From NCBI RefSeq assembly GCF_017302275.1, contig NZ_JAFLDR010000004.1, positions 62,001-126,000 on the forward strand: a DNA stretch of 64,000 bases, in the 5' to 3' direction. This document shows, one piece after another, positions 2,564 to 59,700 of the stretch. This DNA comes from Sulfuritalea sp. (GTDB lineage: Bacteria > Pseudomonadota > Gammaproteobacteria > Burkholderiales > Rhodocyclaceae). Every line of letters starts with the position of its first letter. Positions within the stretch are counted from its first letter, which is position 1. A program made the position numbers and the translations under genes. The notes under the pieces were generated by a model. It had not been told where the DNA came from. It did not search any database and saw only the letters and a program-made list of their open reading frames with translations.

Positions 2564-2615
2564 AAAGTCGGTGCCCCACCAAGACGACTTCCTCCGGCCG
2601 CAGGCGCTGCGGCGC
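2564..2615 (+). repeat. Dispersed AGTCGG repeat, long form (divergent copy)
   Basis: AAAGTCGGTGCCCCACC, then GACTTCCTCCGG and GGCGCTGCGGCG, matches in order the long copies at 15281-15335 and 18525-18573. It lies in the gap between the J-like gene and the methyltransferase gene. Confidence 0.6.
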
Positions 2616-2678
2616 GCGGGCGCGGTCGGGGGCTCTCGCAGTACTATCCGTCCTCCATCTACCTACGGAATCGTTCCC

Positions 2679-3305
2679 ATGAATCAGGAAACCCGCTGGA
2701 ATACGCGCTACCGCGATGCCGGCGACGACTACCTGTTCGGCACCGAGCCGAACCGCTTCCTGGCGCATCGCGCCGACTTGTTGCGCAATGGCCGCTCGGC
2801 CCTGTGCGTGGCCGATGGCGAGGGGCGCAATTCGGTCTGGCTGGCGGAGCAGGGGCTGGAGGTCACCGCCGTTGAGATATCCTCCTTCGCCGTGGAAAAG
2901 GCGCGCCGGCTGGCCGCCGGGCGCGGCGTCGATATCCGTTTCGAGCTGGTCGACATGCTGGCGCCGGGCTGGCCGCCGGCGCCGCTGCACGGCCTGTTCG
3001 ACTGGGTGATCGGCGTCTTCATCCAGTTCACCGGCGCCGTCGATCGCGCGCGGCAGTTCGCGGCGATGAAGCAACTGACTGCCCGCGGCGGACGCATCCT
3101 GTTGCAGGGGTACACCCCAAAGCAACTCGAGTACGGCACCGGCGGCCCCGGCGTGCTCGAAAACCTCTATACCGCCGACATCCTGCGCGCAGCCTTTGCC
3201 GACTGGGTCGTCGAGGAACTGGTCGAGTACGAGGACGAGATCGTCGAGGGCTTTGGCCACAAGGGGCGCTCGGCGCTGATCGGGCTGGTTGCGCGCAAGC
3301 CCTGA
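2679..3305 (+). CDS. Class I SAM-dependent methyltransferase
   Basis: The protein has 208 residues. A glycine-rich SAM-binding motif I (ALCVADGEGRNSVWLAEQG, about 40-58) is followed by an acidic residue in TAVEIS at the end of strand 2, as in class I Rossmann methyltransferases. The order of elements resembles small TehB/thiopurine-type methyltransferases, but the substrate cannot be read from the sequence. The reading frame stays open upstream, but the family-like N-terminus (MNQETRWNTRYRDAGDDYLFG, close to the usual 'FWdxry...y.yG..PN') sets this ATG as the start. The gene is followed by a convergent prmB. Confidence 0.85.
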   Translation: MNQETRWNTRYRDAGDDYLFGTEPNRFLAHRADLLRNGRSALCVADGEGRNSVWLAEQGLEVTAVEISSFAVEKARRLAAGRGVDIRFELVDMLAPGWPPAPLHGLFDWVIGVFIQFTGAVDRARQFAAMKQLTARGGRILLQGYTPKQLEYGTGGPGVLENLYTADILRAAFADWVVEELVEYEDEIVEGFGHKGRSALIGLVARKP

Positions 3306-3328
3306 GCGGCGGGGGATTGCGGGCAATG

Positions 3329-3352
3329 CAAGTCGGCGCCGACGCTACGGCA
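3329..3352 (+). repeat. Dispersed AGTCGG repeat, short form, overlapping the prmB stop
   Basis: AAGTCGGCGCC followed by GCTACGGC. The prmB stop codon (TAG, complement of 3345-3347) lies inside this copy, so the repeat supplies the end of the prmB frame. Confidence 0.6.
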
Positions 3353-4247
3353 CCGGGGGCAGGTCTTCCCGGGTGACGAGAAAAATCTTGCCCGTCGCGT
3401 GCTCGGTATCGAGCCAGACGGCATTGAGCTCGGGGAAGGCGGCAGTCACCAGGTTCTGGTTGTGGCCGACCTCGATGGCGATCACGCCGCCCGGATTCAG
3501 GTGGGCGGCGGCTTCGGCGAGGATGCGGCGTACCACGTCGAGACCGTCGGGGCCGGCGGCCAGGGCCAAGGCAGGCTCGTGGCGATACTCCGCGGGCAGC
3601 GCGTCCATCGCCTGCGCCGTGACGTAGGGCGGGTTACAGACGATCAGGTCGTAACGCTTGCCGGGCACGGCGGCGAACAGGTCGGATTCGATGGCCTTCA
3701 CGCGCTCGTTGAGGCCGTAGTCGGCGATGTTGCGGCAGGCCACCACCAGCGCGTCCGGCGAGATGTCGATGGCATCAATGGCGGCATTGGGGAAGGCGTG
3801 GGCCATCAGCACGGCGAGGCAGCCCGAGCCGGTGCACAGGTCGAGCGCGGAGCCGACCGCGTCGGGATCCTCGATCCAGGGCGCGAAGCCGTCTTCGAGG
3901 AGTTCCGCGAAGTAGGAGCGCGGCACGATCACGCGCTGGTCGACATAGAAGCGGAACTCGCCGAGCCAGGCCTCATGCAGCAGGTAGGCGGTGGGCATGC
4001 GATGGGCTACGCGCTGCTGCAGCATGTCGAGTAGCGCCAGGCGTTCGCCGTGGGTCAGTCGCGCGTCGAGCCAGGGCTCGAGCGTGTCGCGCGGCAGGTG
4101 CAGGGTGGCCAGCACCAGCCAGACCGCCTCGTCCCAGGCATTCTCGGTGCCGTGGCCGTAGCTGAGCCCGGCTTCGTTGAAGCGGCTGACGGCCCAGCGC
4201 AGCCAGTCGCGAATGGTGACCAAGTCGTCGGTGGCGCTGTTGATCAT
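3345..4247 (-). CDS. prmB: 50S ribosomal protein L3 glutamine N5-methyltransferase
   Basis: The 300-residue protein belongs to the HemK/PrmB family, which methylates the side-chain amide of a glutamine; PrmB acts on ribosomal protein L3. SAM motif DLCTGSGC (136-143) and the hallmark NPPY (205-208), which positions the amide nitrogen, are both present. The N-terminal helical domain (1-100) with AWDEAVWLVLATLHLP matches PrmB more closely than the release-factor enzyme PrmC. The length is typical. It is the last gene of the minus-strand dap run. The final codons and the stop fall in a dispersed repeat, so the last few residues may not be ancestral. Confidence 0.92.
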   Translation of the reverse strand: MINSATDDLVTIRDWLRWAVSRFNEAGLSYGHGTENAWDEAVWLVLATLHLPRDTLEPWLDARLTHGERLALLDMLQQRVAHRMPTAYLLHEAWLGEFRFYVDQRVIVPRSYFAELLEDGFAPWIEDPDAVGSALDLCTGSGCLAVLMAHAFPNAAIDAIDISPDALVVACRNIADYGLNERVKAIESDLFAAVPGKRYDLIVCNPPYVTAQAMDALPAEYRHEPALALAAGPDGLDVVRRILAEAAAHLNPGGVIAIEVGHNQNLVTAAFPELNAVWLDTEHATGKIFLVTREDLPPVP

Positions 4248-4317
4248 GGGCGTGAAGGGCCTCCAGCGTGGCGGACGAAGCGACCCGTCGCTGTCGAGCG
4301 CAGGGAGCTAACAGTCA

Positions 4318-4335
4318 CCCCCGCCCGGGCGGGGG
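4318..4335. terminator. GC-only perfect palindrome between dapE and prmB
   Basis: CCCCCGCCC joined directly to GGGCGGGGG is an 18-base perfect palindrome, followed by more G-runs. It lies 18 bases beyond the dapE stop. It could pause or end transcription, but there is no T-tract, so it may only weaken read-through into prmB. Confidence 0.4.
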
Positions 4336-4352
4336 TTGGGGGGTGGGGGCGA

Positions 4353-5534: not shown

Positions 5535-5679
5535 CAGATGTCGCGAACGAATCTGCTGCGCGACCGTATTGCGGCGTTGCTCATTCGCTCACTCCTTGCC
5601 TATCCATTTGATATGTCTCGTCGTTCGCTCAATCGCGCCTTGCTCTCCGGCCTGCTCGCGACGATTCCTTCACAACATC

Positions 5680-7711: not shown

Positions 7712-8914
7712 TCAAAGAGATTGACAGAAATCGTTGATGCGCCGCGCCGCTTCGAGGCATTCCTCGTGGCTGGCGACCAGTGCGATGCGGATGAAGTCGG
7801 CGCCCGGGTTGATGCCATTGGCCTCGCGCGCAAGGTAGCTGCCGGGCAGCACCACGACGTTCTTACGGCGCAGCAGCTCGCGCGCGAAATCGGTATCGGG
7901 TATCGGCGTTTTCGCCCACAGGTAGAAGCCCGCGTCGGGGATCTGGCAGTCGAGGTGGCGCGCGACCAGCGGCGTCACCTCGTGAAACTTCTCGGCGTAC
8001 ATGCGGCGGTTGTCGCGCACGTGGGCCTCGTCGTTCCAGGCGGCGATGCTGGCCGCCTGCACCGCCGGGTTCATGGCGCTGCCGTGGTAGGTACGGTAGA
8101 GCAGGAATTTCTTCATGATCGCCGCGTCGCCGGCGACGAAGCCGGAGCGCAGGCCGGGCACGTTGGAGCGCTTCGACAGGCTGGAGAAGATCACCAGATT
8201 GCGGTATTCGGCACGTCCCAGTTGCGCGGCGGCGGTCAGCCCGCCCAGCGGCGGCTTGGCCTCGTCGAAATGAATCTCGGAATAGCACTCATCGGAGGCG
8301 ATGACGAAGCCGTGGCGATCGGAAAGTTCGAACAATGCCTTCCACGCGGCCAGGTCCATCACCTTGCCGGTCGGGTTGGCCGGGGTGCAGACATACACCA
8401 GTTGCACGTCGCGCCAGGTGGCCGCGGGCAGCTCGCTCCAGTCCATGGCGAAGTTGTTGTGCGGCACGGTATTGAGAAACACCGGCTGGGCGCCGGCGAG
8501 CAGGGCCGCGCCTTCGTAGATCTGGTAGAAGGGGTTGGGGCAGACCACCTTCGCCGCTCCGCCGTTGCGGTCGATCACGGTCTGGGCGAAAGCGAACAGC
8601 GCCTCGCGCGAGCCATTGACCGGGACCACCTGCGTCGAGAAGTCGGGCGCCGGCACGGCATAGCGGCGCGCGACCCAGGCGGCAATAGCCTGGCGCAGCG
8701 CATCGCCGCCCTGGGTAGTGGGATAGTTGGCCAGTCCTGCGAGGTTGTCGGCCAGCGCGCGCTGGATGAAGGGCGGCGTCGGATGCTGCGGTTCGCCGAT
8801 GGACAGCTTGATTTCCTTGAAAGTCGGCGCCGGCGGTACGGCGGCGAACAAGTGGCGCAGCTTTTCGAAGGGATAGGGCTGCAGGCGGTCGAGGTCGGGA
8901 TTCACGTCTGTCAT
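7712..8914 (-). CDS. dapC: Succinyldiaminopimelate transaminase
   Basis: This PLP enzyme of aminotransferase fold type I makes N-succinyl-LL-diaminopimelate, using glutamate as amino donor. The product has 400 residues. Schiff-base lysine K248 lies in [16 protein letters not shown], the cofactor Asp/Tyr in [10 protein letters not shown], and the N-terminal [11 protein letters not shown] is characteristic of DapC. It is the first gene of the dapC-dapD-pilU transcript; a TATAAT box lies just upstream. The codons for PPAPTFKEI near residue 28 coincide with a copy of the dispersed repeat. Confidence 0.94.
8819..8845 (+). repeat. Possible dispersed AGTCGG repeat inside dapC
   Basis: GAAAGTCGGCGCCGGCGG followed by TACGGCG matches the short repeat consensus inside the dapC frame (about residues 24-33, a variable stretch ahead of the conserved LSIGEP motif). 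In-frame acquisition is possible, but convergence by codon use cannot be excluded. Confidence 0.4.
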
Positions 8915-13565: not shown

Positions 13566-13602
13566 GGTGCGGTGCCGGGAGTGGGCCGGAAGGTGGCCAA
13601 CC

Positions 13603-13633
13603 AAAAGTCGGCGCCGGCGACACGGCGTTTTTA
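13603..13633 (+). repeat. Dispersed AGTCGG repeat, short form
   Basis: AAAAGTCGGCGCCGGCGACA followed by CGGCGTTTTT. This is the closest copy to the consensus. It lies between selO and the nuclease gene. Confidence 0.75.
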
Positions 13634-15280: not shown

Positions 15281-15335
15281 GAAAATTCGGCACCCCACAG
15301 GGGCTTCCTTCGGTCGCTGGCGACACGGCGTCCTT
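15281..15335 (+). repeat. Dispersed AGTCGG repeat, long form
   Basis: GAAAATTCGGCACCCCAC, then GGGGCTTCCTTCGGTCGC and TGGCGACACGGCG. It aligns base for base over most of its length with the inverted copy at 18525-18573 inside the iorB-like gene. It lies in the promoter region of the CreA gene. Confidence 0.75.
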
Positions 15336-16731: not shown

Positions 16732-16793
16732 GGAAAAGTCGGCGCCGGTGACACGGCATTGCGCAGTGCCGTGCCGCCAGCGCCGACTTTCCA
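16732..16793. repeat. Head-to-head pair of dispersed AGTCGG repeats
   Basis: AAAAGTCGGCGCCGGTGACA, then CGGCATTGCG, is mirrored by CGCAGTGCCGTGCCGCC and AGCGCCGACTTTCC. The two copies face each other and can fold into one long hairpin. It lies just beyond the end of the Old Yellow Enzyme gene and may act as its terminator. Confidence 0.75.
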
Positions 16794-18412: not shown

Positions 18413-20628
18413 ACGCGCCCGTTATCGAGAACCTGAGCCGCCGCGGCTTCCTGCAGGGTGTCGGCGGATTGACGCTGGGCTTCTGCATTTCCGCGCCGCT
18501 GGGACCGGCCGCGCTGGCCAGGATCGCCGTCGCGCCAGCGACCAAAGGAAGCCCCCGTGGGGCGCCGACTTTCGGCTTCAACGCATTCCTGCGCATCGGC
18601 AGCGACGACACGGTGACCGTGATCTCCAAGCACCTCGAAATGGGGCAGGGCACCTACACCGGCCTGGCGACGATACTCGCCGAAGAACTCGACGCCGACT
18701 GGAAGGCGGTGCGCGTCGAGGGTGCACCGGCCGACGCCAGCCGTTACAACAACCTGTTCTGGGGCCCGGCGCAGGGTACCGGCGGCAGCACCGCGATAGC
18801 CAACTCCTGGGGCCAGTTGCGCGCCGCCGGCGCCACCGCGCGCGCCATGCTGGTGGCTGCAGCGGCCAAGCGCTGGCAGGTGCCTGCCTCCGAGATCACG
18901 GTGCGCGATGGCGTGGTCATGCATGCCGCCTCCAGGCGCCGCGCGCGCTTCGGCGAACTGGCCGAGGCGGCGGCGCAAGAGAAGCTGTTGATCGACGTGG
19001 CGCTGAAGAAGCCATCCGAGTTCCGCCTCGTCGGCCGTCATGCGCGGCGCCTGGACAGCGCCGACAAGGTCAATGGCAAGGCGCAGTTCACGCAGGACGT
19101 GCAGTTGCCCGGCATGCTGGTCGCGGTGGTCGCCCATGCGCCGCGCTTCGGCGCCGTGCTGCGCGGTTTCGACGGCGCGGCGGCGAAGCGGGTCAAGGGT
19201 GTGGCGGACGTGGTGCAGATCCCCTCGGGCGTCGCCGTGCTGGCGAGCGATACCTGGTCGGCGAAAAAGGGGCGCGACGCGCTCAAACTCGATTGGGACG
19301 AAGCCAAGGCGTTCAAGCTCGGCACCGACGAGATCCTGGCGAAGTACCGGGAACTGGCGAAGAAGCCGGGACTGGTGGCCCATGCGTCAGGAGACGTCGA
19401 CGCGGCCTTCGCCAAGGCGGCCAAGGTGATCCGCGCCGAGTTCGACTTCCCCTACCTGGCGCACGCGGCGATGGAGCCGATGAATTGCGTGGTTCGGCGC
19501 ACGGCCGAGGGCTGCGAGGTGTGGAACGGTGAGCAGCTGCACACCGGCGACCAGTACGCGCTGGCCGCCGTGTTCGGCCTCAAGGCCGAGCAGGTCAAGA
19601 TCAACATGCTCTACGCCGGCGGCAGCTTCGGTCGGCGCGCCAACACCAGGTCGGACTATGTGGTCGAGGCGGCGAACATCGTCAAGGCGATCGATGGCCG
19701 CGCGCCGGTCAAGCTGGTCTGGCTGCGCGAGGACGACATGCGCGGCGGCTACTACCGGCCGCTGTTCCACCACGCGCTGGAAGCCGCGATCGACGCCGAG
19801 GGCCGGCTCGCCGGCTGGCGCCATCGCCTGGTCGGCCAGTCCATCCTCAAGGGCTCGCCCTTCGAGGGCATGGTCAAGAATGGCATCGACGCCGTCTCGG
19901 TCGAGGGCGCGGCCAACCTGCCCTATGCGATCCCCAACATGCGCGTCGACCTGCATTCGCCCGATGACATCGCCGTGCCGGTGCTGTGGTGGCGCTCGGT
20001 CGGGTCTTCACACACCGCCTATTCGACCGAGGTCTTCCTCGACCAGGCAGCCAAGGCCATGGGCAAGGATCCGGTGGCGTTGCGCCTGGAACTGCTGGCC
20101 AAGCATCCGCGCCATGCCGCCGTGCTGCGCCTGGCGGCCGAGAAGGCCGGCTGGGACAAGCCGCTGGCCCCGGGCAAGCCGGGCACGCGGCGCGGCCGCG
20201 GCGTGGCCGTGCATGAGTCCTTCCATTCCTATGTCGCCGAGGTGGCGGAGGTGACGGTGGCCGCCGACGGCACACTGACGGTCGACCGCGTGGTCTGCGC
20301 CGTCGATTGCGGCATCGCCGTTAACCCCGACAACGTGCGTTCCCAGGTCGAGGGCGCGGTCGGCTTCGCGCTCTCTGCCGCCCTCTATGGCGAGATCGCG
20401 CTCAAGGACGGCGTGGTGACCGCCGGCAACTTCGATGCCTATCCGATCCTGCGCATCAACGAGATGCCCAAGGTCGAGGTGCACATCGTTCCCTCGCCAG
20501 CCGATCCCACCGGCATCGGCGAGCCACCCGTGCCGCCGCTGGCGCCGGCCGTGGCGAATGCCATCGGCGCCGCGACAGGCAGGTATCCGGGACGGCTGCC
20601 GTTTCGCGCGGAGGATCTCAAGGTCTGA
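18409..20628 (+). CDS. Molybdenum hydroxylase large subunit (IorB-like), Tat-exported
   Basis: The 739-residue subunit binds the molybdopterin cofactor and carries out hydroxylation or aldehyde oxidation. A twin-arginine signal is present ([20 protein letters not shown], residues 9-28), so the heterodimer is probably exported folded to the periplasm. Family motifs include [31 protein letters not shown] and [18 protein letters not shown] near the C-terminus. The true substrate is unknown. Residues about 39-55 ([16 protein letters not shown]), between the signal and the mature domain, are encoded by a long repeat copy. The start overlaps the IorA-like stop by four bases. Confidence 0.92.
18525..18573 (-). 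repeat. Dispersed AGTCGG repeat, long form, inside the iorB-like gene
   Basis: Read on the minus strand: GAAAGTCGGCGCCCCACGGG, then GGCTTCCTTTGGTCGC and TGGCGCGACGGCG. It is nearly identical to the long copy at 15281-15335. It lies in frame between the Tat signal and the mature enzyme. Confidence 0.75.
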
Positions 20629-20629
20629 G

Positions 20630-20654
20630 CGCCGTATTGCCGGCGCCGACTTTT
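20630..20654 (-). repeat. Dispersed AGTCGG repeat, short form
   Basis: On the minus strand AAAAGTCGGCGCCGGCAATA followed by CGGCG. It begins two bases after the iorB-like stop codon. Confidence 0.7.
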
Positions 20655-21103: not shown

Positions 21104-21664
21104 ATGAAAACCCGCCTTAGCCTCCTGTTCGCCGCCACCTTCCTCGCCAACCTGGTTTTCGCCGCCGATGCGCCGGCCAGCGCGGCCGAGAAGCGCTATG
21201 CCGAGGATCGCAAGCTGTGCGCCGACGAATCCTCGTCGAGCGCGCGCATGCAATGCCTGCGCGACGCCAAGGCCGAGTACGACAAGACAGTCGGCGCCGG
21301 CGTCACGGCGAAGCCGGCCGTGGCAAAGACCTGCGAGGGCTGCGGCAGGGTGGTTGCGGTGTCGGTGGTGGAGAAGGATGGCGAGGGCAGCGCGGTCGGC
21401 ATGGTCGCCGGCGGCGTGGCGGGGGCCCTGCTTGGCAACCAGATCGGCAAGGGCGCCAGTCGCGACATCGCGACCCTCGCCGGTGCGGCCGGCGGCGCCT
21501 ATGCGGGCAACAAGATCGAGCAGAAGGTGAAGGCGGTCAAGCGCTGGGACGTGGTGGTGCGCTTCGACAACGGTACCGAGAAGTCCTACAGCTTCGACAA
21601 GGACCCCGGTTTCGCCATCGGCAGCGACGTGAAGTCTGCCGGCAACAGCGTTGTTGCCCGCTGA
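21104..21664 (+). CDS. Glycine zipper 2TM domain exported protein
   Basis: This 186-residue protein has a signal peptide (1-20, ending LVFA). A Cys pair lies in CEGCGRVV, and a glycine-zipper region follows (GMVAGGVAGALLGNQIGKG ... AGAAGGAYAGNKIE) typical of SlyB/PCP-like envelope proteins. A C-terminal beta part (RWDVVVRFDNGTEKSYSF) ends it. It probably sits in the outer membrane or periplasm; the role is unknown. The ATG at 21104 begins the signal peptide; open sequence upstream is unsupported. Codons for TVGAGVTAKP coincide with a possible repeat copy (21287-21312). Confidence 0.85.
   Translation: MKTRLSLLFAATFLANLVFAADAPASAAEKRYAEDRKLCADESSSSARMQCLRDAKAEYDKTVGAGVTAKPAVAKTCEGCGRVVAVSVVEKDGEGSAVGMVAGGVAGALLGNQIGKGASRDIATLAGAAGGAYAGNKIEQKVKAVKRWDVVVRFDNGTEKSYSFDKDPGFAIGSDVKSAGNSVVAR
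21287..21312 (+). repeat. Possible dispersed AGTCGG repeat in the glycine-zipper gene
   Basis: ACAGTCGGCGCCGGCGTCAC followed by GGCGAA differs from the consensus at few positions. It is in frame in a linker region of the protein. Confidence 0.4.
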
Positions 21665-22017: not shown

Positions 22018-22356
22018 CTAGGCCTTTTTCACGAACTCGGACTTCAGTCCCATTTGTCCGATGCCGTCAATCCGACAGTCGATGTCGTGGTCGCCGTCCA
22101 CCAGGCGGATGTTCTTGACCTTGGTGCCGACCTTGACCACCGAGGAGGAGCCCTTGACCTTGAGGTCCTTGATCACGGTGACCGTGTCGCCGTCCTGCAG
22201 CAGGTTGCCGTTGGAATCGCGCACCACGCGCACCTCGTCCGGACCGGCGGCGGCCTGGCAGGGCCACTCGTGGGCGCATTCCGGGCAGACGAAGTTGTCG
22301 CCATCCGCGTAGGTGAATTCGGATTTGCATTGCGGACAGGGTGGCAGGCTGCTCAT
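22018..22356 (-). CDS. yjdM: Zinc ribbon protein YjdM (PhnA family)
   Basis: The 112-residue protein has an N-terminal zinc ribbon with two Cys pairs ([21 protein letters not shown]). The C-terminal KOW-like barrel carries [16 protein letters not shown] and [21 protein letters not shown], the signature of YjdM, formerly called PhnA. The function is unknown; the link to phosphonates is historical and probably wrong. It is the first gene of a two-gene unit with the cupin gene. Confidence 0.93.
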
Positions 22357-22436
22357 GGGCTTCTTTCGCTGACGTGGGCTCTTGGTCGTAAATGCTACTA
22401 CGCCGGGTTCGGTCGCCGGGCGTTCGGACCGTTCGG

Positions 22437-22452
22437 CCAGCGCCGACTTTCG
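22437..22452 (-). repeat. Partial dispersed AGTCGG repeat
   Basis: Only CGAAAGTCGGCGCTGG (minus strand) is recognisable, upstream of the yjdM-like gene. The gap 22357-22625 otherwise shows nothing. Confidence 0.4.
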
Positions 22453-24376: not shown

Positions 24377-24403
24377 GAAAGAGTCGGCGCGGGCGCTACG
24401 GCG
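24377..24403 (+). repeat. Dispersed AGTCGG repeat, short form
   Basis: GAAAGAGTCGGCGCGGGCGC followed by TACGGCG. It lies in the divergent gap between the aminotransferase gene and uvrB. Confidence 0.65.
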
Positions 24404-27128: not shown

Positions 27129-29870
27129 TCAGTCGCGCTTGGTTTCCACCATCTGCAATGGTTCGCTGACGATGGTCGCGGCCGGTTTCGGCTTGCGGCC
27201 GAGAGGCTGCACCGGTGCGAAGTTGTCAGCCGCCGGGGCGCTGTGGCTGGTTTCGATCATCACCAGGCCGACTTGTTGCAGCGATTCCTTGATGTCGGCC
27301 GCGGCGGGTGCCGGCGGAACGATGATCGGATCGGCCGCCGGCGCCGGCGCAACCGCGACGGCGACCGTTGCCGGGATGGCAACCGGCTGCGGCGCGGGTT
27401 CGACGGCGACCGGTTCCGCCACTTCGACTGCTTCCACGGCGGCTGGGACGACGGTTTCCATGATTGCCGCTTCGATCGGGGCGGGAATCTCGGTCAAGGC
27501 GACGGGAACCGGCTCGGCGGCGGGTATCGGCGCCATGATCGGGGCCGTGGCCTCGACGGTGACGGCAGGTGCGGTGTATGCTTCCGTGTCCCCGGCCGGG
27601 AGGGCTGCGCCAACGTCGCCGGCGACAACTCCGGCGGCAACTTCGGGCGCGCTGCCTTCCTCGCTGCGGCCACGGCCGCGGCCGCGGCCGCGGTTGCGGC
27701 GCCCGCTACGGGCCTCGCCGTCGGCAGGGGCGGAATCCCCAACAGTCGGCGCCGGCGCCACGGCGTTTTGCATGCCATTTGCGTCGTTGCGCGGCTGGCG
27801 TGGCTCACGCGGTTCCCTCGGCTCGCGGCCTTCCTTGGGCTCACGTGGCGGACGTGGCTCACGTGCTTCCCTGGGTTCACGGACCTCGCGTGGTTCCCGA
27901 ACTTCGCGCGGCTCGCGAGCCTCCCGCGGTTCGCGCGGCTTGCGGTTGCCCGCATCGCCTTGCTCGTCGCGCTTTGCCGCCAGGCGTGGCGTTTGCTCCA
28001 TCTTTTCCTTGCGCTCGCCGTTTTCGCGGTTGTCACGTCCGTCGCGTCGATTGTTGCGATCGCGTCCGCCCCGTCCGCCATCACGGTTGCGATCGCGATT
28101 GCCCTCGCGGCGAGGCGCCCGCTCGGTCTTCTCTTCACTGACCACGGGGGCTTCCACCTTCGGACCGCCGGTGAATATCGACAATAGCTTGCTGAAGAAG
28201 CCAGGCTGGCTCACTGGTACGGGCGGCGTGGCGGGCTTGGGTTCGACGATGGGTGCCGGCTGGTCGGGGGTGATGCCCTTGACCGCGGCTTCGATCCTGG
28301 CGGGCTTGGCTTCGGCGTTGGCCGAGGGCGGCTGATAGTTCTCTTCGATGGGCTTTTCGGCCATCTGGTAGCTGGCCAGTGCCATGCCTTCGGCATTGAG
28401 CTGGTCGTGGCGCAGGCGGACGATCTCGTGGGCCGGAGTTTCCAGGTGGCGATTCGGCACGATGACCAGATTGACGCGGTGACGCATCTCGATGCGCGAG
28501 ATATCCACGCGCTTCTCGTTGAGCAGGAAGGTGGCGACGTCCACCGGAACCTGACAGTGCAGGGCGCCGGTGTTTTCCTTCATCGCCTCTTCCTCGAGGA
28601 TGCGCAGGATGTGCAGCGCGGCGGATTCGGTGCTGCGGATGTGGCCAGTGCCGGTGCAGCGCGGGCAGGTGATGTAACTGGTCTCGGCGAGCGCCGGGCG
28701 CAGGCGCTGGCGGCTGAGTTCGAGCAGGCCGAAACGGCTGATCTTGCCGGTCTGGACGCGGGCGCGGTCGTGACGCAAGGCATCGCGCAGGCGATTCTCG
28801 ACCTCGCGCTGGTTCTTGGTCGATTCCATGTCGATGAAGTCGATCACGATCAGGCCACCGAGGTCGCGCAGGCGCAGTTGGCGGGCGATTTCGTCGGCGG
28901 CTTCGCAGTTGGTGCGGAAGGCGGTTTCCTCGATGTCGCTGCCCTTGGTGGCGCGGCCCGAGTTGACGTCGACCGAGACCAGGGCCTCGGTGTGGTCGAT
29001 GACGATGGCGCCGCCGGAGGGCAGGGTGACTTGCCGCGAATAGGCGGATTCGATCTGGTGTTCGATCTGGAAACGCGAGAACAGCGGCACGTCGTCGTGG
29101 TAACGCTTGACGCGATTCACCGTACCCGGCATCACGTGCGCCATGAACTGCTGCGCCTGCTCGAAGATGTCGTCGGTGTCGATCAGGATCTCGCCGATCT
29201 CCGCGTGGAAGTAATCGCGGATGGCGCGGATCACCAGGCTGGACTCCTGGTAGATCAGGAAGGCGCCGCTCTGGGCCTTGGCCGCGCCGTCGATTGCGTT
29301 CCACAGCTGGAGCAGGTAATTGAGGTCCCACTGCAGTTCTTCGAGATTGCGGCCAATACCTGCGGTGCGGGCGATGAGGCTGGTGCCGCTGGGTACCACC
29401 AGTTGGTCCATCACTTCGCGCAGTTCCTGGCGGTCTTCGCCCTCGACGCGGCGCGAGACGCCACCGCCGCGCGGATTGTTGGGCATCAGCACCAGGTAAC
29501 GGCCGGCCAGCGATACGTAGGTGGTCAGTGCCGCGCCTTTGTTGCCGCGCTCGTCCTTTTCGACCTGGACGATCAGTTCCTGGCCGTTGCTGAGGGCGTC
29601 CTGGATACGCGCCTTGCCGGGGTCGACGCCGGGCTTGAAATAGTTGCGGGAAATTTCCTTGAACGGCAGGAAGCCGTGGCGCTCGGCGCCATAGTCCACG
29701 AAGGCGGCTTCGAGGCTGGGCTCGATGCGTGTGATGACTGCCTTGTAGATGTTGCTCTTGCGCTGTTCCTTGTTGGCCGATTCGATGTCGAGGTCAATCA
29801 GTTTCTGACCATCGACGATCGCAACGCGGAGTTCCTCGGCCTGCGTCGCATTGAAAAGCATGCGTTTCAT
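27129..29870 (-). CDS. rne: Ribonuclease E
   Basis: This endonuclease is the core of the RNA degradosome and processes mRNA, rRNA and tRNA. It has 913 residues. The N-terminal catalytic half contains an S1 domain (about 36-120), catalytic D301 and D344, and the Zn-link Cys pair C402/C405 (CPRCTGTG), all at nearly the numbering of the E. coli enzyme. The C-terminal half (from about 530) is disordered: a GFFSKLLSIF membrane-targeting-like helix, an Arg/Asp/Asn-rich RNA-binding stretch, a tandem REPRE-type repeat, an Arg/Gly box and an Ala/Pro/Val-rich tail. The ATG at 29870 is preceded by GGGAGC. A dispersed repeat copy encodes part of the tail. Confidence 0.97.
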   Translation of the reverse strand: MKRMLFNATQAEELRVAIVDGQKLIDLDIESANKEQRKSNIYKAVITRIEPSLEAAFVDYGAERHGFLPFKEISRNYFKPGVDPGKARIQDALSNGQELIVQVEKDERGNKGAALTTYVSLAGRYLVLMPNNPRGGGVSRRVEGEDRQELREVMDQLVVPSGTSLIARTAGIGRNLEELQWDLNYLLQLWNAIDGAAKAQSGAFLIYQESSLVIRAIRDYFHAEIGEILIDTDDIFEQAQQFMAHVMPGTVNRVKRYHDDVPLFSRFQIEHQIESAYSRQVTLPSGGAIVIDHTEALVSVDVNSGRATKGSDIEETAFRTNCEAADEIARQLRLRDLGGLIVIDFIDMESTKNQREVENRLRDALRHDRARVQTGKISRFGLLELSRQRLRPALAETSYITCPRCTGTGHIRSTESAALHILRILEEEAMKENTGALHCQVPVDVATFLLNEKRVDISRIEMRHRVNLVIVPNRHLETPAHEIVRLRHDQLNAEGMALASYQMAEKPIEENYQPPSANAEAKPARIEAAVKGITPDQPAPIVEPKPATPPVPVSQPGFFSKLLSIFTGGPKVEAPVVSEEKTERAPRREGNRDRNRDGGRGGRDRNNRRDGRDNRENGERKEKMEQTPRLAAKRDEQGDAGNRKPREPREAREPREVREPREVREPREAREPRPPREPKEGREPREPREPRQPRNDANGMQNAVAPAPTVGDSAPADGEARSGRRNRGRGRGRGRSEEGSAPEVAAGVVAGDVGAALPAGDTEAYTAPAVTVEATAPIMAPIPAAEPVPVALTEIPAPIEAAIMETVVPAAVEAVEVAEPVAVEPAPQPVAIPATVAVAVAPAPAADPIIVPPAPAAADIKESLQQVGLVMIETSHSAPAADNFAPVQPLGRKPKPAATIVSEPLQMVETKRD
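27741..27770 (+). repeat. Dispersed AGTCGG repeat inside rne
   Basis: AACAGTCGGCGCCGGCGCCA followed by CGGCGTTTTG. Antisense to the repeat it encodes NAVAPAPTV in the disordered tail of RNase E. Confidence 0.65.
27790..27950 (-). repeat. Tandem REPRE-coding repeat in rne
   Basis: About 160 bases of degenerate tandem units encode PREPREAREPREVREPREV and onwards, in steps of about five to six codons. DNA units such as CGTGGCTCACG and CGCGGCTCGCG recur. This is an expansion of the Arg-rich RNA-binding region. Confidence 0.7.
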
Positions 29871-40504: not shown

Positions 40505-40526
40505 CCGACCTGACTGGAATTCCCCC

Positions 40527-42164
40527 ATGAGCAATCCCTACGCTTCAGGACTGGACAAGAACCCGGCGAACTATGTTCCGCTGACGCCGCTATCCTTCAT
40601 CGAGCGCTCGGCTTATATCTATCCCGACCACGTGGCCACCATCCACGGCGAGCGACGCTACACCTGGCGCCAGGAATACGAGCGGGCCCGGCGCCTGGCT
40701 TCAGCGCTGGCCGCTCAGGGAGTCGGCGCCGGCGACACGGTGGCGGCGATGCTCAACAACACGCCGGAGATGTTTGAGTGCCATTTCGGCGTGCCGATGT
40801 GCGGCGCCGTGCTCAATACGCTCAACACGCGCCTCGATGCGGAGACCATCGCCTTCATGCTCAACCACGGCGAGGCAAAGGTACTGATCACCGACCGCGA
40901 ATATTCTCCGATGGTGAAGAAGGCGCTGGCCGAACTGGGTCGCGAGATCTTCGTCGTCGATGTCGACGACCCCGAATACTTCGGGCCCGGCGAGCGCCTC
41001 GGCAGCATAGCCTTCGAGGCTTTCATCGCCGGCGGCAATCCCGACTATGCGTGGCAGACACCCGCGGACGAGTGGGATGCGATTTCGCTCAACTATACCT
41101 CGGGCACCACCGGCAACCCCAAGGGCGTGGTCTATCACCATCGCGGCGCCTATCTCAATGCCTTGTCCAACATCGTTTCCTGGGGCATGCCACCACAGGC
41201 GATCTACCTGTGGACGCTGCCGATGTTCCATTGCAACGGCTGGTGCTTCCCGTGGACCGTGGCGGCGAACTCGGGCACCAATGTCTGCCTGCGCCGCGTT
41301 GATCCGAAGCTGATTCTCGATGCCATCCGCGAACACAAGGTCAGCCATTACTGCGGCGCGCCCATCGTGCATTCGATGCTGATCAGCGCCCCGGCCGAGT
41401 GGCGCGCCGGGATCAACCACAAGGTGTCGGCGCTGGTCGCTGCGGCGCCGCCACCGGCCGCCGTGATCGAGGGCATGAACCAGATCGGCTTCAACATCAC
41501 CCATGTCTACGGCCTGACCGAAACCTACGGCCCGGCGGCGGTCTGCGCCAAGCACGAGGCCTGGCTCGATCTGCCGCTCGATGAACAGGTGCGTCTCAAT
41601 GGCCGCCAGGGCGTGCGCTACCACTGCCAGGAAGGCATCACCGTGATGGACCCGGAGACCATGCAGTCCGTACCCTGGGACGACCAGACCATGGGCGAGA
41701 TCATGTTCCGCGGCAACATCGTGATGAAGGGTTACCTGAAGAACCCCAAGGCTACCGAGGAAGCCTTCCGTGGCGGCTGGTACCACACCGGCGACCTCGC
41801 CGTGATGCAGCCCGACGGCTACGTGAAGATCAAGGACCGCAGCAAGGACGTGATCATTTCCGGCGGCGAGAACATTTCCTCGATCGAGGTCGAGGACATG
41901 CTCTACCGCCATCCGGCGGTGATGGGCGTCGCCGTGGTTGCCACGCCCGACCCCAAGTGGGGCGAAGTGCCCTGCGCCTTCATCGAGCTGCGCGAGGGAG
42001 CGACGGTGACGGCCGAGGAACTGACCGAGTTCTGCCGCGAGCGGATGGCCCGCTTCAAGGTACCCAAGCGCTTCATTTTCGAGCCGCTGCCGAAGACATC
42101 GACCGGCAAGATCCAGAAGTTCGTGCTGCGCGAGAAGGCAAAGTCCACTGCCGCCATCGAGTAA
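40527..42164 (+). CDS. Acyl-CoA synthetase (AMP-forming)
   Basis: The enzyme has 545 residues and activates a carboxylic acid to its CoA thioester via an acyl-adenylate. Motifs: P-loop YTSGTTGNPKGVVYHHRGAY (about 188-207), HVYGLTETYGPA, GWYHTGDLAVMQPDGYVKIKDRSKD and the catalytic Lys in KTSTGKIQKFVLR. It most resembles fatty/short-chain or methylthiopropionate-type ligases, with FHCNGW as in that group; the substrate is not certain. It is followed by an enoyl-CoA hydratase gene after 25 bases, suggesting a beta-oxidation-like route. Confidence 0.93.
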   Translation: MSNPYASGLDKNPANYVPLTPLSFIERSAYIYPDHVATIHGERRYTWRQEYERARRLASALAAQGVGAGDTVAAMLNNTPEMFECHFGVPMCGAVLNTLNTRLDAETIAFMLNHGEAKVLITDREYSPMVKKALAELGREIFVVDVDDPEYFGPGERLGSIAFEAFIAGGNPDYAWQTPADEWDAISLNYTSGTTGNPKGVVYHHRGAYLNALSNIVSWGMPPQAIYLWTLPMFHCNGWCFPWTVAANSGTNVCLRRVDPKLILDAIREHKVSHYCGAPIVHSMLISAPAEWRAGINHKVSALVAAAPPPAAVIEGMNQIGFNITHVYGLTETYGPAAVCAKHEAWLDLPLDEQVRLNGRQGVRYHCQEGITVMDPETMQSVPWDDQTMGEIMFRGNIVMKGYLKNPKATEEAFRGGWYHTGDLAVMQPDGYVKIKDRSKDVIISGGENISSIEVEDMLYRHPAVMGVAVVATPDPKWGEVPCAFIELREGATVTAEELTEFCRERMARFKVPKRFIFEPLPKTSTGKIQKFVLREKAKSTAAIE

Positions 42165-42990: not shown

Positions 42991-43016
42991 GAAGAGTCGG
43001 CGCTGGCGCAACGGCG
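42991..43016 (+). repeat. Dispersed AGTCGG repeat, short form
   Basis: GAAGAGTCGGCGCTGGCGCA followed by ACGGCG. It fills nearly the whole 41-base gap between the hydratase gene and the fusion gene. Confidence 0.65.
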
Positions 43017-50018: not shown

Positions 50019-50953
50019 GCCGGCGCGTCAGCATTGCCTACCTGATCGGACTCGGCTTGCTGCTGCTGGCGCCGATGTTCATCTATCCGATCCTGGTGAT
50101 GAAGGTGCTGTGCTTCGCGCTGTTCGCCTGCGCCTTCAACCTGCTGCTGGGATTTACGGGTCTGCTGTCCTTCGGCCACGCGGTGTTCCTCGGCAGCGCC
50201 GCCTATGTCACCGGCCACGCCCTGAAGGTATGGGAGTTGCCGACCCTGCTCGGCCTGCTGGCCGGCGCCGGCGCCGCGACGCTGCTGGGCTGGGTGATCG
50301 GCAGCCTCGCCATCCGCCGCCAAGGCATCTATTTCGCCATGGTGACGCTGGCACTGGCGCAGATGGTGTTCTTCTTCTTCCTGCAAGCGCCCTTTACTGG
50401 TGGCGAGGACGGCCTGCAGGGCGTGCCGCGCGGAACCCTGTTCGGCCTCGACCTGGCCGACGACATCAACCTCTACTACCTGGTGCTGGCGATTTTTGCC
50501 GGCGCCTTCTGGCTGATCCAGCGCACCATCCATTCGCCTTTCGGGCAGATCCTCAAGGCCATCCGCGAAAACGAACCGCGTGCAATTTCTCTCGGCTACG
50601 ACGTGGCGAAGTACAAGCTGCTGGCCTTCGTGCTGTCCGCGGGGCTGGCCGGCCTCGCCGGGGCGACCAAGACCCTGGTGTTCAAGTTCGCCACGCTGAC
50701 CGACGCCCACTGGCACACCTCGGGCGAGGTGGTGCTGATGACGCTGCTGGGCGGCATGGGCACCGTGTTCGGGCCGGTGGTGGGGGCGACGGTCATCGTC
50801 ACGCTGCAGAACGAACTGGCCGACAAGGTCGGGTCGCTGGTCACGGTGATCATGGGAGCGATCTTCGTCATCTGCGTGCTGGCTTTCCGCCGCGGCATCG
50901 TCGGCGAATCGCTGGCGCTATACCAGCGCATGATCGGTCAGAAGAGCCGCTGA
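50015..50953 (+). CDS. livM: Branched-chain-type ABC transporter permease LivM
   Basis: The 312-residue protein has multiple membrane helices. FNLLLGFTGLLSFGHAVFLGSAAYV, the coupling region GQILKAIRENEPRAISLGYDV and LLGGMGTVFGPVVGA are family signatures. GGGAGGGAGAA precedes the ATG, which overlaps the livH stop. This is the last gene of the transporter operon livG-livF-binding protein-livH-livM. Confidence 0.94.
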   Translation: MSRRVSIAYLIGLGLLLLAPMFIYPILVMKVLCFALFACAFNLLLGFTGLLSFGHAVFLGSAAYVTGHALKVWELPTLLGLLAGAGAATLLGWVIGSLAIRRQGIYFAMVTLALAQMVFFFFLQAPFTGGEDGLQGVPRGTLFGLDLADDINLYYLVLAIFAGAFWLIQRTIHSPFGQILKAIRENEPRAISLGYDVAKYKLLAFVLSAGLAGLAGATKTLVFKFATLTDAHWHTSGEVVLMTLLGGMGTVFGPVVGATVIVTLQNELADKVGSLVTVIMGAIFVICVLAFRRGIVGESLALYQRMIGQKSR

Positions 50954-50998
50954 AAGTTCCCAAAGGGACGCAGGGCACTGGCGCCGGCAACACGGCAC
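50952..50998 (+). repeat. Dispersed AGTCGG repeat, degenerate long form
   Basis: TGAAAGTTCCCAAAGGGACG, then CACTGGCGCCGGC and AACACGGCACC. The outer parts match the consensus; the middle differs. It starts at the livM stop codon. Confidence 0.5.
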
Positions 50999-56250: not shown

Positions 56251-56682
56251 TCAACCTCGCGTGTTCGACTGCAGCGAAAACTCCGCCAGTTCGATCTTCG
56301 CCGCCGGTTTCCAGCCCTTCTTGCGGTGTTCCGCAACGATGTTGGTGAATATTCCCCCACGCACGTAAAAGCGGGCAGCGAGTCGCATGAAGCGCGGCTG
56401 CGTGGCGCGCACCAGGTCGTCAAGGATGCGGTTGGTCACATCCTCGTGGAAATGGCCCTCGTCGCGAAAACCCCAGATGAAGAGCTTGAGGCTTTTGAGC
56501 TCGACGCAGAGTTTGTCGGCGACGTAATCGAGGGTCAGCACGGCGAAGTCCGGCTGCCCGGTCTTGGGGCAAAGACAGGTGAATTCCGGGATTTCCATGT
56601 GGATCTGGTAATCCCTGTGCGGCGCCGGATTGGCAAAGGTTTCCAGGAAGGTGGAACGGGTCCGGGCGGAGGGTTTTGGCAT
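56251..56682 (-). CDS. queF: 7-cyano-7-deazaguanine reductase
   Basis: The 143-residue enzyme reduces preQ0 to preQ1 with NADPH in queuosine synthesis. It is the short (unimodular) type. The catalytic C38 is in [12 protein letters not shown], and [26 protein letters not shown] carries the substrate Glu and NADPH motif. The ATG at 56682 was chosen; the open frame upstream overlaps the smc promoter. It is divergent from smc with 92 bases between. Confidence 0.95.
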
Positions 56683-56717
56683 GCTCTGGGGCCGCAGGTA
56701 AGAGGGGCGGGACGGAT

Positions 56718-56723
56718 TATAAT
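56718..56723 (+). promoter_or_regulatory. Candidate -10 box for the smc operon
   Basis: Perfect TATAAT 51 bases before the smc GTG. No convincing -35 box. Confidence 0.45.
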
Positions 56724-56774
56724 GGCGCGCCAGATCCACGGCTTCTTCGCGATCATCTTTCCGGTTCATCCCAC

Positions 56775-59700
56775 GTGCGTCTATACAAGCTGAAACTCTC
56801 GGGCTTCAAGTCCTTTGTCGAGCCCACCACGGTGCTTTTTCCGGGCCAGCTGGCCGGGGTCGTCGGTCCCAACGGTTGCGGCAAATCCAACATCATCGAT
56901 GCCGTGCGCTGGGTGCTGGGCGAATCCAAGGCCTCGGAACTGCGCGGCGAGTCGATCCAGGACGTGATCTTCAAGGGATCGGGCAATCGCAAGGAAGTCT
57001 CCCGCGCCGCGGTCGAACTTCACTTCGACAATGCCGCGGGTCGCGCCGCCGGCCAGTGGAGCCAGTACGCCGAGATCACCGTCAAGCGCGTGCTCGACCG
57101 CGAGGGCAATTCCAGCTACTACATCAACAACCTGCACGTCCGTCGCCGCGACGTGATCGACCTCTTCCTCGGCACCGGCCTGGGGCCGCGAGCCTACGCC
57201 ATCATCGGCCAGGGCATGATTTCGCGCATCGTCGAGGCCAAGCCCGAGGAACTGCGCTTCTTCCTCGAAGAGGCGGCCGGCGTCACCAAGTACAAGGAAC
57301 GCCGCCGGGAAACCGAACATCGCCTGGAAGACGCCCGCGAGAACATCGCCCGCGTCGATGACATCCGCAACGAACTCAAGAAGCAGGTCGAGCACCTTCA
57401 GGCGCAGGCCGCCGTGGCACAGCAGTATCGCGGCCTGCACGAGGAGATGTCGCGCAAGCAGACCCTGCTCTGGCTGAAGAAACGCAATGACGCACGCAGC
57501 GACGGCCAGCGCCTGTCGCGCCAGGTCGAGGAAGCCGTCACCCGGGTCGAGGCCGAAACCGCGCAGTTGCGCGAAATCGAAGCACGCGTCGAGCACTCGC
57601 GCGAGAGCCACTATTCGGCGTCCGATGCGCTGCATGCCGCGCAGGCGGAAATGCATGCCGCGACCAACGAGGTCGGCCGGCTGGAAAGCGAATTGGGCCA
57701 TCTGCGCGATTCACGCAGCCGGTTGGAAACGCGGCTGGCCCAACTGGGTGCTGAACAAAGCCACTGGAGCGGCCAGCAGGCGACCCTGGCGGAAGATTCG
57801 GCGCGCTGGAACGCGCTTCTGGATAACTCCCGCAATCGTGTCGCCGCCGCTGCCGCGCGCCACGAGGAGGCTGCCGCGCGCCTGCCGGAGTGCGAGGACG
57901 CGGTGCAAAGTGCCGGCGGCGATGTCACCGAGGCCCGTCGCGCCCTGAGCGAGGCCGAGCAGGCCTTGCGCCTGGCCGAGGCCGATCGCGGTCATGCCCA
58001 GCGCGCACTTGAAAATCTTGCCCAGCGGCGCGGCCGGCTGGAACAGGACAAGCAAGCGCTCGGCGCGCCCGACCCTGCGCAACTGGCCGCGTCGCGCGAG
58101 GCCGAGGCACGCGGCGCCGAAGCGCTCGACGTGGCGCAGGAACGCCTGACCGAACTGCAATCCACCGTGCCTGGAGCGGAAGCCGCGCTGCGCGCGGCAC
58201 GCGAATCCCTGCAGGCGGCGCATCGCGGCCTGACCGAATCCCGTGCCCGCCACGATGCCTTGGCCCAGCTGCAGGCCAAGGTGGCCAAGGGCGGGGAGAT
58301 CGGTGACTGGCTCAAGGCGCGCGGGCTCGCCGAAGCGAAACCCCTGTGGCAGTCGATCCAGGTCGAGGCGGGCTGGGAAACCGCGGTCGAGGCGGTGTTG
58401 CGCGAGCGCTTTTCGGCGCTGGCCGCCGATCCCGAAACGCTGCGTGCGGCGCTGCAATCGCCTCCACCGGCGATTCTGACCCTGGCCGTGACTTCCGCAT
58501 TGGCGGCAGCAAGTGCGCCGATGGAAAGCCTGCGCGCCAAGGTGCGCTGCGAGGATGCGCGCTGGAACGGCGTGCTCGACGAATGGCTGGCCGAAGTGTC
58601 GGTCAGCGAGGATCTCGCGGCCGGCTTGCCGCTGGCAACTGGTTGCCGCGTTTCGCGCGCGGGCCATTTGCTGACGCCGGCCGGCCTCACGCTGTATGTC
58701 CCCGATGCCAAGACCCACGGTGTCATCGAACGCCAGCGCGAGATCGACGATCTCGCCGCGCAACTCGACGCGCGTGCCGAAGCGGAAGATATCGCGCGCG
58801 CGCGCCAGCAGGGCGCGGAACAGGAACTGGCCGAGTTGCAGGTCCAACTGACGAGCGCCCGGCGTGCCCTGCAGGAAGCCCAGCAGGCCCTGCACGCTGC
58901 CCAGGTCGAGGCGCTGAAGCTGGCCCAGGCCCAGGCGCGCTACGAGGAACGCAGCGCGCAGATCGACCGCGACCTGGCAGAGTTGCAGCGGCAGGAGGAA
59001 ATCGAGAAGGCGCGCATCGGGCGCGCCGACGACGAGGGAGAACTGCAGCGCGAGCGCCTCAGCGCCGTGCGCGAGCGCGTCGAGCGCGCCATCGACCTGC
59101 ACCGGCAGAGGGACATGGCGCTGCGCGACGCGCGGGCGGTCGAGACCCAGCTCGGGCGCGAGTTGCAGGAAGCCGGGTTTTCCGAGCGTGAATGCCTCTC
59201 CAAACTCGATGACAACGGCCGCGCGGCGGCGACGGCCAGCAGCCAGTTGCAGCGCATCGACGCCGAAACCGCGGCGGCGCGCACCGAGGTCGCCGGCATC
59301 AGCGACACCGTGCTGCAGGAACAACTGCATGCGGCGCTGGATGCGCGCGGCATCAAAGAGTCGGCGCTGGCGGAACGGCGCAACGTGCTCGAAGCGGCGG
59401 CCGGCGAACTGCGCAACCTCGACGAACAGCGCCTGCGGCTGGAGCAGGGCCTGACGCCGCTGCGCGACAAGATCAGCGACTTGCGGCTCAAGGCCCAGGC
59501 GGCGCAGCTCAACGAGGAGCAGTACCGCGAGCGCCTCGCCGAAGTACGCGTCGTCAGCGAGGCGGACGAAGCCCCCTTCCTCGGCGAACTTTCCGCGGGT
59601 GGCGCCGATAGGCTCAAGGACAGCGTCCTGCAGGGCGACATCGCGCGGCTCACCGCCGAAATCGAAACGTTGGGCCCGGTCAATCTTGCGGCGCTGGAGG

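What the first reader, a model, noticed from the sequence alone, without database searches (positions are those of the whole stretch)
2564..59380. Dispersed short repeat family with core AGTCGGCGCC ... ACGGCG
At least ten copies are visible in 64 kb, at 2564, 3329, 13603, 15281, 16732 (double), 18525, 20630, 24377, 27741 and 42991; weaker ones lie at 8819, 21287, 22437, 50952 and 59355. They occur in both orientations, mostly in gaps or at gene ends. The element is short (about 25-55 bases) and contains no gene. I cannot assign it to a known named family. It resembles REP/MITE-like elements in size and dispersion, but the internal palindrome is limited (GGCGCC).
Basis: seen in the sequence. 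Interest (0 to 1): 0.72.

Follow-up and report, generated by a model that had tools for sequence, protein, structure and literature searches.

The report
DNA-uptake-sequence-like motif in Sulfuritalea relatives
A 24-letter DNA word is scattered hundreds of times through the genomes of a group of environmental bacteria, inside and between genes, and it looks more like the self-recognition tags that some bacteria use when taking up DNA than like a jumping element.

Summary
The repeat is real. Its unit is a 24-mer, AAAGTCGGCGCYGGCGNNACGGCG (about 34 bits). G000 holds 650 copies at <=2 mismatches, equally on both strands; the reversed control holds 0. All 31 genus genomes have it (34-650), as do two sister genera, one with its own dialect (...ACGGCA); the other family genera sampled hold 0-2.
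It is not a typical REP/MITE: no hairpin; most copies lie inside genes, in several frames (30 of 52; 59 of 80). Several genic copies align without a gap to homologues lacking the motif (BirA, RF1, QueA, DegT), so they arose by substitution; of 11 sites where some relative lacks the motif, one shows a clean empty site. Spacing is more even than random in one of two samples.
This resembles DNA uptake sequences (DUS/USS). I propose a third, longer one; uptake is untested.
Against: copies lie unusually often beside Y1-transposase (RAYT-like) genes, and some homologues are a few residues shorter at the motif.

The parts
407..430 (+). 24-mer copy, exact, intergenic
2564..2614 (+). degenerate long form (left head with 1 mismatch, insert, right tail with 2 mismatches)
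3329..3352 (+). 24-mer copy, 3 mismatches, overlaps a gene end
8820..8843 (+). 24-mer copy, exact, inside the gene at 7712-8914 (-)
13604..13627 (+). 24-mer copy, exact, touching the start of the SelO gene (11931-13604, -)
15283..15330 (+). long form (48 nt); the orthologous site in G014 is a degenerate short form, 24 nt shorter
16735..16758 (+). 24-mer copy, 2 mismatches, left arm of an inverted pair, intergenic
16767..16790 (-). 24-mer copy, 1 mismatch, right arm of the inverted pair (8-nt gap)
18525..18572 (-). long form (48 nt) inside the molybdopterin-binding gene 18409-20628; the site is 24 nt shorter (short or near-short form) in G008, G009, G014, G018
20630..20653 (-). 24-mer copy, 1 mismatch, 1 nt after the stop of 18409-20628
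21287..21310 (+). 24-mer copy, 1 mismatch, inside gene 21023-21664
22427..22450 (-). 24-mer copy, 3 mismatches, inside gene 22018-22491
24380..24403 (+). 24-mer copy, 2 mismatches, upstream of uvrB; same place in 20 of 23 aligned genomes, about 27 nt missing in G010, G013, G017
27742..27765 (+). 24-mer copy, 1 mismatch, inside the RNase E gene 27129-29888 (-), in a region of variable length
40719..40742 (+). 3-mismatch copy inside gene 40485-42164; possibly a coding coincidence
42993..43016 (+). 24-mer copy, 1 mismatch, in the gap between genes 42190-42984 and 43026-45818
50953..50997 (+). mosaic: AGTTCCC..GGGACGCA segment in place of the left half, then the right half of the 24-mer
59357..59380 (+). 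1-mismatch copy inside gene 56775-60296 (smc by my reading, not from a call); possibly a coding coincidence

Best explanation
The 24-mer is a DNA-uptake-sequence-like motif. Proposed mechanism: in naturally competent cells a receptor on the type IV competence pilus prefers DNA that carries the motif; fragments with a copy or near copy are imported and recombined more often than others. Point mutations that improve a site are therefore over-transmitted, so copies build up by substitution at places that tolerate them: loops and linkers in proteins, and gaps between genes. Genera drift to their own dialect, and copies fade where upkeep stops (possibly G017). Shown here: abundance, both strands, genic and intergenic placement, in-place origin at several genic sites, conservation above the flanks with two freer positions, one dialect, even spacing in one of two samples, absence from one low-GC stretch, and presence of ComEC and a ComP-type minor pilin domain. 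Inferred: natural competence in this genus, the receptor, and the uptake bias. The 48-nt and mosaic copies are read as 24-mers that later received small inserts or hairpin elements.
For: The most over-represented 12-mer lies in the motif in all four samples tested (200 or 400 kb each of G186, G284, G002, G000). Genome counts 650 vs 0 control; 31 of 31 genus genomes. Sister genera: 159 in G284, 133 and 36 in two g32 genomes, dialect ...RGACGGCA in G186. Genic copies 30 of 52 and 59 of 80, in several frames and both orientations. BirA loop: 14 of 19 orthologues have exactly 24 nt there, including motif-less G017, G021, G025; no gap against solved BirA chains 8f8u and 1bia; RF1, DegT aminotransferase and QueA likewise in their best hits. 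Clean recount: 34 site groups, 147 site-by-genome states, 115 with the motif, 11 partial, 21 without it at 11 sites; the 21 are 5 same-length (22-26 nt), 5 of 15-33 nt, 2 clean empty (both at site 24380), 9 other, mostly longer. Ortholog pairs with the motif on both sides (210 of the 217 ungapped 24-nt pairs; several per site): identity 0.953 at 21 fixed positions, 0.736 at NN, 0.821 in flanks. Spacing CV 0.736 vs 0.985 at random, 0.15% of 2000 simulations as even (G002, 84 copies). No copy in C1:75174-200000, GC about 56-60%. ComEC in 30 of 31 genus genomes; ComP_DUS domain in both genus genomes of the family sample. No Y1 transposase detected in G018 (99% complete, 476 copies).
Against: No uptake or transformation data. 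24 nt and about 34 bits is much longer than DUS (12 nt, recall), and a drive model needs partial sites to be favoured, yet few copies have 4 mismatches (4 of 56 and 7 of 87). Copies lie near Y1-transposase genes more than expected (11 of 24 loci; background 8 of 214 genes). Inverted pairs, reported in high numbers for DUS dialects (PMC3630211), are rare here (1 in 464 kb, 0 in 400 kb). ComEC and the ComP-type pilin also occur in genera without the motif. The intergenic site 24380 lacks about 27 nt in three genomes. TrmD and GatA have 4 and 2 extra residues at the motif against their best solved homologues (GatA 7 against the second), and IlvD, ungapped over the motif itself, has 8 extra residues directly after it in the best hit. 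The second ortholog group is a linker of variable length, so weak evidence. Even spacing was not significant in C12 (24% of simulations). IMG/VR contigs also carry copies. One of four other family genomes (G034) has its own over-represented word.
Confidence: 0.57

Rival explanations
1. REP/MITE-like mobile element moved by the Y1 (RAYT-like) transposases found in most genomes of the genus.
For: Y1_Tnp in 26 of 31 genomes; same-strand copy within 200 bp 3' of the gene in 11 of 24 loci examined against 8 of 214 background genes; about 27 nt missing at site 24380 in three genomes; IlvD with 8 extra residues just after the motif; forms with inserts or hairpins.
Against: No hairpin in the 24-mer (z -0.80); mostly genic; BirA, RF1, QueA and DegT without a gap; clean empty sites at 1 of 11 sites; five genomes without a detected Y1_Tnp hold 34-476 copies; the transposase genes I read have other repeats at their own ends. 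Three of the 11 loci (L357, L359, L377) share flanks and are not independent.
Confidence: 0.17
2. Binding site of an unknown chromosomal protein (nucleoid, segregation or recombination), kept by selection at hundreds of places.
For: Sequence conserved above its flanks with two freer positions; even spacing in G002; found in every genus genome searched.
Against: Both strands used about equally in a 400-kb stretch of the one-contig G002 genome (36 +, 44 -), unlike polar motifs; 24 nt and hundreds of copies is beyond the chromosomal sites I know (recall); G017 has 34 copies although its closest relatives on the tree have 335-479, so it seems dispensable.
Confidence: 0.2
3. By-product of base or codon composition.
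For: The motif is G+C-rich and one frame (KVGAGxTA) looks like common loop sequence; the copies at 40719 and 59357 may be coding coincidences.
Against: 0-2 reversed-control matches in G000 against 650-759; 0 copies in 80-100 kb of each of four family genomes of similar GC against 23 and 27 in 100-kb control samples; several frames and both strands.
Confidence: 0.01

Closest known systems
DUS (DNA uptake sequence), Neisseriaceae
   Same: Most abundant repeat of the genome, intragenic and intergenic copies, dialects (PMC3630211: abstract and section 'DUS counts' read); a ComP_DUS-type minor pilin domain is encoded here too.
   Different: 24 nt instead of 12 (recall); unrelated sequence; 34-650 copies at <=2 mismatches instead of about 900-6000; inverted pairs rare; no uptake test.
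USS (uptake signal sequence), Pasteurellaceae
   Same: Hundreds to thousands of copies, intragenic ones studied (PMC2346458, start of abstract in a search listing only); even spacing is from recall.
   Different: Unrelated sequence; no 9-nt core plus A/T-rich arms (recall).
REP elements with RAYT (TnpA-REP) transposases (definition from recall)
   Same: Short, dispersed, both orientations, some copies beside Y1 transposase genes.
   Different: No hairpin in the core, mostly genic, no insertion signature at most sites compared.
Neisserial mosaic repeats and Rickettsia palindromic elements (recall)
   Same: Small in-frame inserts within genes and mosaic forms resemble the 48-nt and AGTTCCC variants.
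   Different: This concerns only the rarer variants, not the 24-mer.

Membership tests
DNA uptake sequence (DUS/USS kind) | Strongly over-represented genome-wide, both strands | tested here: met
   650 (326/324) vs 0 control; top 12-mer in 4 of 4 samples
DNA uptake sequence (DUS/USS kind) | Common inside coding sequence | tested here: met
   30 of 52 and 59 of 80 genic (my own gene calls; 6 of the 30 in one giant frame)
DNA uptake sequence (DUS/USS kind) | Copies arise by substitution in place | tested here: inconclusive
   For: BirA, RF1, DegT, QueA ungapped. Mixed: IlvD ungapped over the motif but 8 residues longer right after it, TrmD +4, GatA +2; HemW not covered. 1 of 11 sites with a clean empty state
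DNA uptake sequence (DUS/USS kind) | Lineage dialects | tested here: met
   Consensus in G186 ends ACGGCA with RG at the free positions, matches listed for G061 mostly share it; one dialect, one genus
DNA uptake sequence (DUS/USS kind) | Depleted in foreign DNA | tested here: inconclusive
   0 copies in 125 kb of low-GC C1, one stretch of unknown nature; some IMG/VR loci rich in copies
DNA uptake sequence (DUS/USS kind) | Even spacing | tested here: inconclusive
   Met in G002 (0.15% of simulations as even), not significant in C12 (24%)
DNA uptake sequence (DUS/USS kind) | Raises DNA uptake and transformation | not testable with these tools
   Needs an experiment
DUS of Neisseriaceae proper | About 12 nt (recall) with a CTG core; inverted pairs in high numbers (PMC3630211) | tested here: not met
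   24-nt unit; 1 inverted pair within 200 bp in 864 kb
REP with RAYT | Imperfect palindrome that folds as a hairpin | tested here: not met
   z -0.80; 42 of 200 shuffles fold at least as well
REP with RAYT | Extragenic | tested here: not met
   Majority genic
REP with RAYT | Flanks a Y1/RAYT transposase gene | tested here: inconclusive
   11 of 24 loci (24 of the 30 fetched gave a gene) have a same-strand copy within 200 bp downstream; mostly one-sided; 5 of 31 genomes without a detected gene
MITE or small insertion element | Clean empty sites | tested here: not met
   Of 21 site-by-genome states without the motif, 2 are clean empty, both at site 24380. In the earlier run 44 of 46 pairs at -2 to -7 are that site
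Rfam RNA family | Covariance-model match | tested here: not met
   Only a tRNA at gathering thresholds in the window

The most novel reading that the evidence does not exclude
A third, independently evolved self-DNA recognition system: Rhodocyclaceae around Sulfuritalea and Sulfurisoma mark their genomes with a 24-nt, about 34-bit uptake sequence, the longest known to me, with a genus dialect and signs of loss in a single lineage.
Probability: 0.52. Interest if true: 0.85.

Novelty: new variant of a known kind. Interest (0 to 1): 0.71.

Why it matters
Uptake sequences are known mainly from Neisseriaceae and Pasteurellaceae, largely bacteria of animal hosts (recall). A third, environmental lineage with a dialect and a species that has nearly lost the motif would allow comparative tests of how such sequences arise, how specific a receptor can be, and whether they serve recombination among kin or are a by-product of biased uptake. 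It would also give a label for telling resident from recently imported DNA in these genomes.

Tried and rejected
Chance/composition: rejected by controls. Polar chromosome motif (Chi/KOPS-like): no clear strand bias in 400 kb of G002 (36 +, 44 -). Terminator made of inverted pairs: 1 pair in the 864 kb of the G000 and G002 samples. Hairpin: no fold, no Rfam family but a tRNA. Protein-level motif: several frames and both strands. Transposition by RAYT: not supported at most sites, but the neighbourhood excess stays unexplained. One search took the wrong strand for many loci; one search replaced it, and there L357 and L377 still show a longer frame and L373 a fragment, L362 and L364 have no downstream sequence, and 6 of 30 loci gave no gene; one search listed 45 matches, of which I held 30 as loci. 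ComP_DUS as a discriminating marker: useless, since it rings in 56 of 61 genomes of the family sample, and the G000 hit is a minor pilin beside other pilin-like genes (my reading). ComEC likewise. De novo word search in G442, G478, G457, G034: best 12-mer z 8, 6, 7, 11 against 17 and 16 in the controls; G034's word may be a repeat of its own and was not followed. In one search many pairs scored 'absent' are alignment shifts of present copies; one search replaced it. Of 19 ortholog groups only 2 had at least 4 orthologues. HemW was uninformative. PHROGs/Pfam on ten proteins of two motif-rich IMG/VR loci found ParB, a cytosine methylase, an HNH endonuclease (PHROGs only) and an RNA ligase, 6 of 10 with no hit; I did not settle whether they are phages. 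Paper searches for a prior description gave none (open-licence PMC only; I looked at the listings and read parts of one paper, PMC3630211).
Full report
OBSERVATION. The window lies at G000:C34:62001-126000 of a 4.41-Mb genome in 88 contigs; its GC is 65.6%. The word AGTCGGCGCC occurs 332 times in that genome, its reversed control 32 times. The full unit, AAAGTCGGCGCYGGCGNNACGGCG, occurs 650 times at up to 2 mismatches (326 forward, 324 reverse; control 0) and 759 times at up to 3 (control 2). In 464 kb of G000 there are 52 copies at <=3 mismatches and in 400 kb of G002 80. Information is nearly confined to the 24 positions (33.9 bits in G002; the base on either side adds 0.43 and 0.58; further out the mean is 0.04). 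The two N positions are much freer; position 12 is T or C, and A/G alternate at the left end.

TWO SIZES. Most copies are 24 nt. A 48-nt form carries about 24 nt (CCCACAGGGACTTCCTTCGGTCGC-like) between left head and right tail. It has 68 copies in G000 and 32 in G014, 0-3 in the other 23 genus genomes and 0 in the 16 genomes of other families in that search. At 18525 four relatives (G008, G009, G014, G018) have a site 24 nt shorter at the same place in the gene, and at 15283 G014 is likewise shorter, so the long form reads as short form plus insert. Other inserts exist: 36 nt inside the motif in G007, and in a mosaic copy in G028; 60 nt in G027 relative to G016.

WHO HAS IT. All 31 genus genomes have it (34 to 650 copies); six other genera of the family have 0-2 and 24 genomes of other families 0-4 at <=2 mismatches. 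Of 399 genomes of the order searched at <=1 mismatch, 24 have any match; besides G000 only G186 (133), G061 (36) and G284 (159) have many, all of the same family; no genome outside the family has more than 5. G186's consensus ends in ACGGCA and prefers RG at the free positions, a dialect. G284's contig C6 has the same length, 539,424, as NZ_BHVV01000006.1 of Sulfurisoma sediminicola, so I take g36 to be Sulfurisoma. The genus name Sulfuritalea for G000 is inference. Samples of 80-100 kb from four other family genomes have 0 copies at <=4 mismatches, against 23 and 27 in 100-kb control samples.

WHERE COPIES LIE. With my own gene calls (coding 91% and 92%), 30 of 52 (G000) and 59 of 80 (G002) copies are wholly inside genes, 18 and 17 intergenic, 4 and 4 overlapping a gene end. 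Six of the 30 lie in one giant open frame of C1. Genic copies use several frames: KVGAGxTA, RRxASADF, AVSPAPTF and ESALAxRR are the usual peptides. Strands are used about equally (28/24 and 36/44). Spacing in G002 is more even than random (CV 0.736 vs 0.985; 0.15% of 2000 simulations), with 8 gaps under 1 kb where 15.8 were expected; in C12 the trend is not significant. The last 125 kb of the C1 sample, with GC 56-60%, has none.

HOW COPIES ARISE. Of 217 ungapped 24-nt ortholog pairs (several per site), 210 carry the motif on both sides; their identity is 0.953 at 21 fixed positions, 0.736 at the two N and 0.821 in flanks. In BirA, 14 of 19 orthologues have exactly 24 nt between the flanks, among them G017, G021 and G025, which lack the motif; the other five have inserts. 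In a second group 14 of 18 orthologues have it; G017, G021 and G025 again lack it, in a linker whose length varies anyway, and G023 has an insert. These three are also the lowest-copy genomes (34, 119, 167). Against solved homologues the motif region aligns without a gap in the best hit for BirA, RF1, DegT aminotransferase and QueA. IlvD is ungapped over the motif (native EEELAQRR against ESALAARR) but has 8 extra residues directly behind it; TrmD has 4 and GatA 2 extra residues at the motif (GatA 7 against its second hit); HemW was not covered. A clean recount over all fetched genus loci gives 34 site groups and 147 site-by-genome states: 115 with the motif, 11 partial, 21 without it at 11 sites. 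Of the 21, 5 have the same length, 5 lie within 15-33 nt, 9 are other (mostly longer), and 2 are clean empty, both at the intergenic site 24380. That site is shared by 20 of 23 aligned genomes, while G010, G013 and G017 lack about 27 nt there. So several genic copies were written by substitution into existing loops; the sample of informative sites is small. On a three-protein tree G017 sits in a fully supported clade with G004, G010 and G013 (335-479 copies), so it has probably lost copies; G021 and G025 were not in that tree.

MECHANISM. The only process I know that writes a long motif into genes and gaps by substitution, on both strands, with lineage dialects, is biased uptake of self DNA during natural transformation (DUS of Neisseriaceae, USS of Pasteurellaceae). 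Frye et al. 2013 (PMC3630211; abstract and section 'DUS counts' read) report DUS as the most abundant repeat in two species, dialects, intragenic copies and more one-off than exact copies; here exact to one-off is 12:21 and 17:32. ComEC is found in 30 of 31 genus genomes and a ComP_DUS-type minor pilin in both genus genomes of the family sample, but both are also common in genera without the motif. Uptake, competence and receptor are inferred, not shown.

AGAINST. Y1-transposase genes occur in 26 of 31 genomes, and 11 of 24 loci examined have a same-strand copy within 200 bp downstream, against 8 of 214 genes with a comparable gap in the G000 and G002 samples; three of the 11 share flanks. In the cases I read, the copies lie outside the transposase's own end repeats. 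This could be insertion near the motif, hitch-hiking, or a real role. Five genomes without a detected Y1 gene still have 34-476 copies. Inverted pairs, frequent for DUS, are rare, and the motif is about twice as long as DUS. Copies also occur on IMG/VR contigs (198 at <=3 mismatches in 1.1 Mb of loci chosen because each has one).

VERDICT. A real, lineage-specific motif that most likely works like an uptake sequence (0.57), not a typical REP/MITE. No earlier description was found in the open-licence PMC library.

Noticed in passing
G000:C1:17577-75173 (-), loci L266-L269: One open frame of about 57.6 kb (roughly 19,000 codons) called as a single gene; probably a giant repetitive surface protein. 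Not checked.
   Followed up: no
G000:C1:75174-200000: Low-GC (about 56-60%) stretch without any 24-mer copy; perhaps an island, plasmid or foreign contig.
   Followed up: partly
L306, L356-L379: Y1-transposase (RAYT-like) genes with own end repeats (GGGGTCAGAGTCATTTGACT or GGGGACAGACCACG types) have 24-mer copies close by far more often than other genes.
   Followed up: partly
genus genomes; window 50955-50982: Mosaic element AGTTCCCNNAGGGACGCA + right half of the 24-mer; stem letters seem to change together (AGTTGCC..GGTAC, AGTTTCC..GGAAC), and G003 has copies spaced 49 nt in tandem.
   Followed up: partly
L316, L315 (site orthologous to window 27742): A strong hairpin repeat GGGGTTATGCCTCTGGCG..CGCCAGAGGCGGTATCCCC-like stands directly before a right half of the 24-mer in the RNase E genes of G002 and G022; the G002 stretch folds well (z -2.94).
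   Followed up: partly
L256, L150 (IMG/VR): Loci of contigs listed as viral with 7 and 6 motif copies at <=4 mismatches; genes include ParB and a C5 methylase (L256), an HNH endonuclease and an RNA ligase (L150): perhaps mobile elements that carry the motif.
   Followed up: partly
G002 first 100 kb (L286-L290): A second over-represented word, AATCTGCGGA (n 9, expected 0.4), with variants such as AATCTGCGAA.
   Followed up: no
G034 (L465-L468): Another genus of the family has its own over-represented words around GCAGCGATGCCCAAC and CTGCGCTCACCCCAACC (7-8 copies in 80 kb).
   Followed up: no
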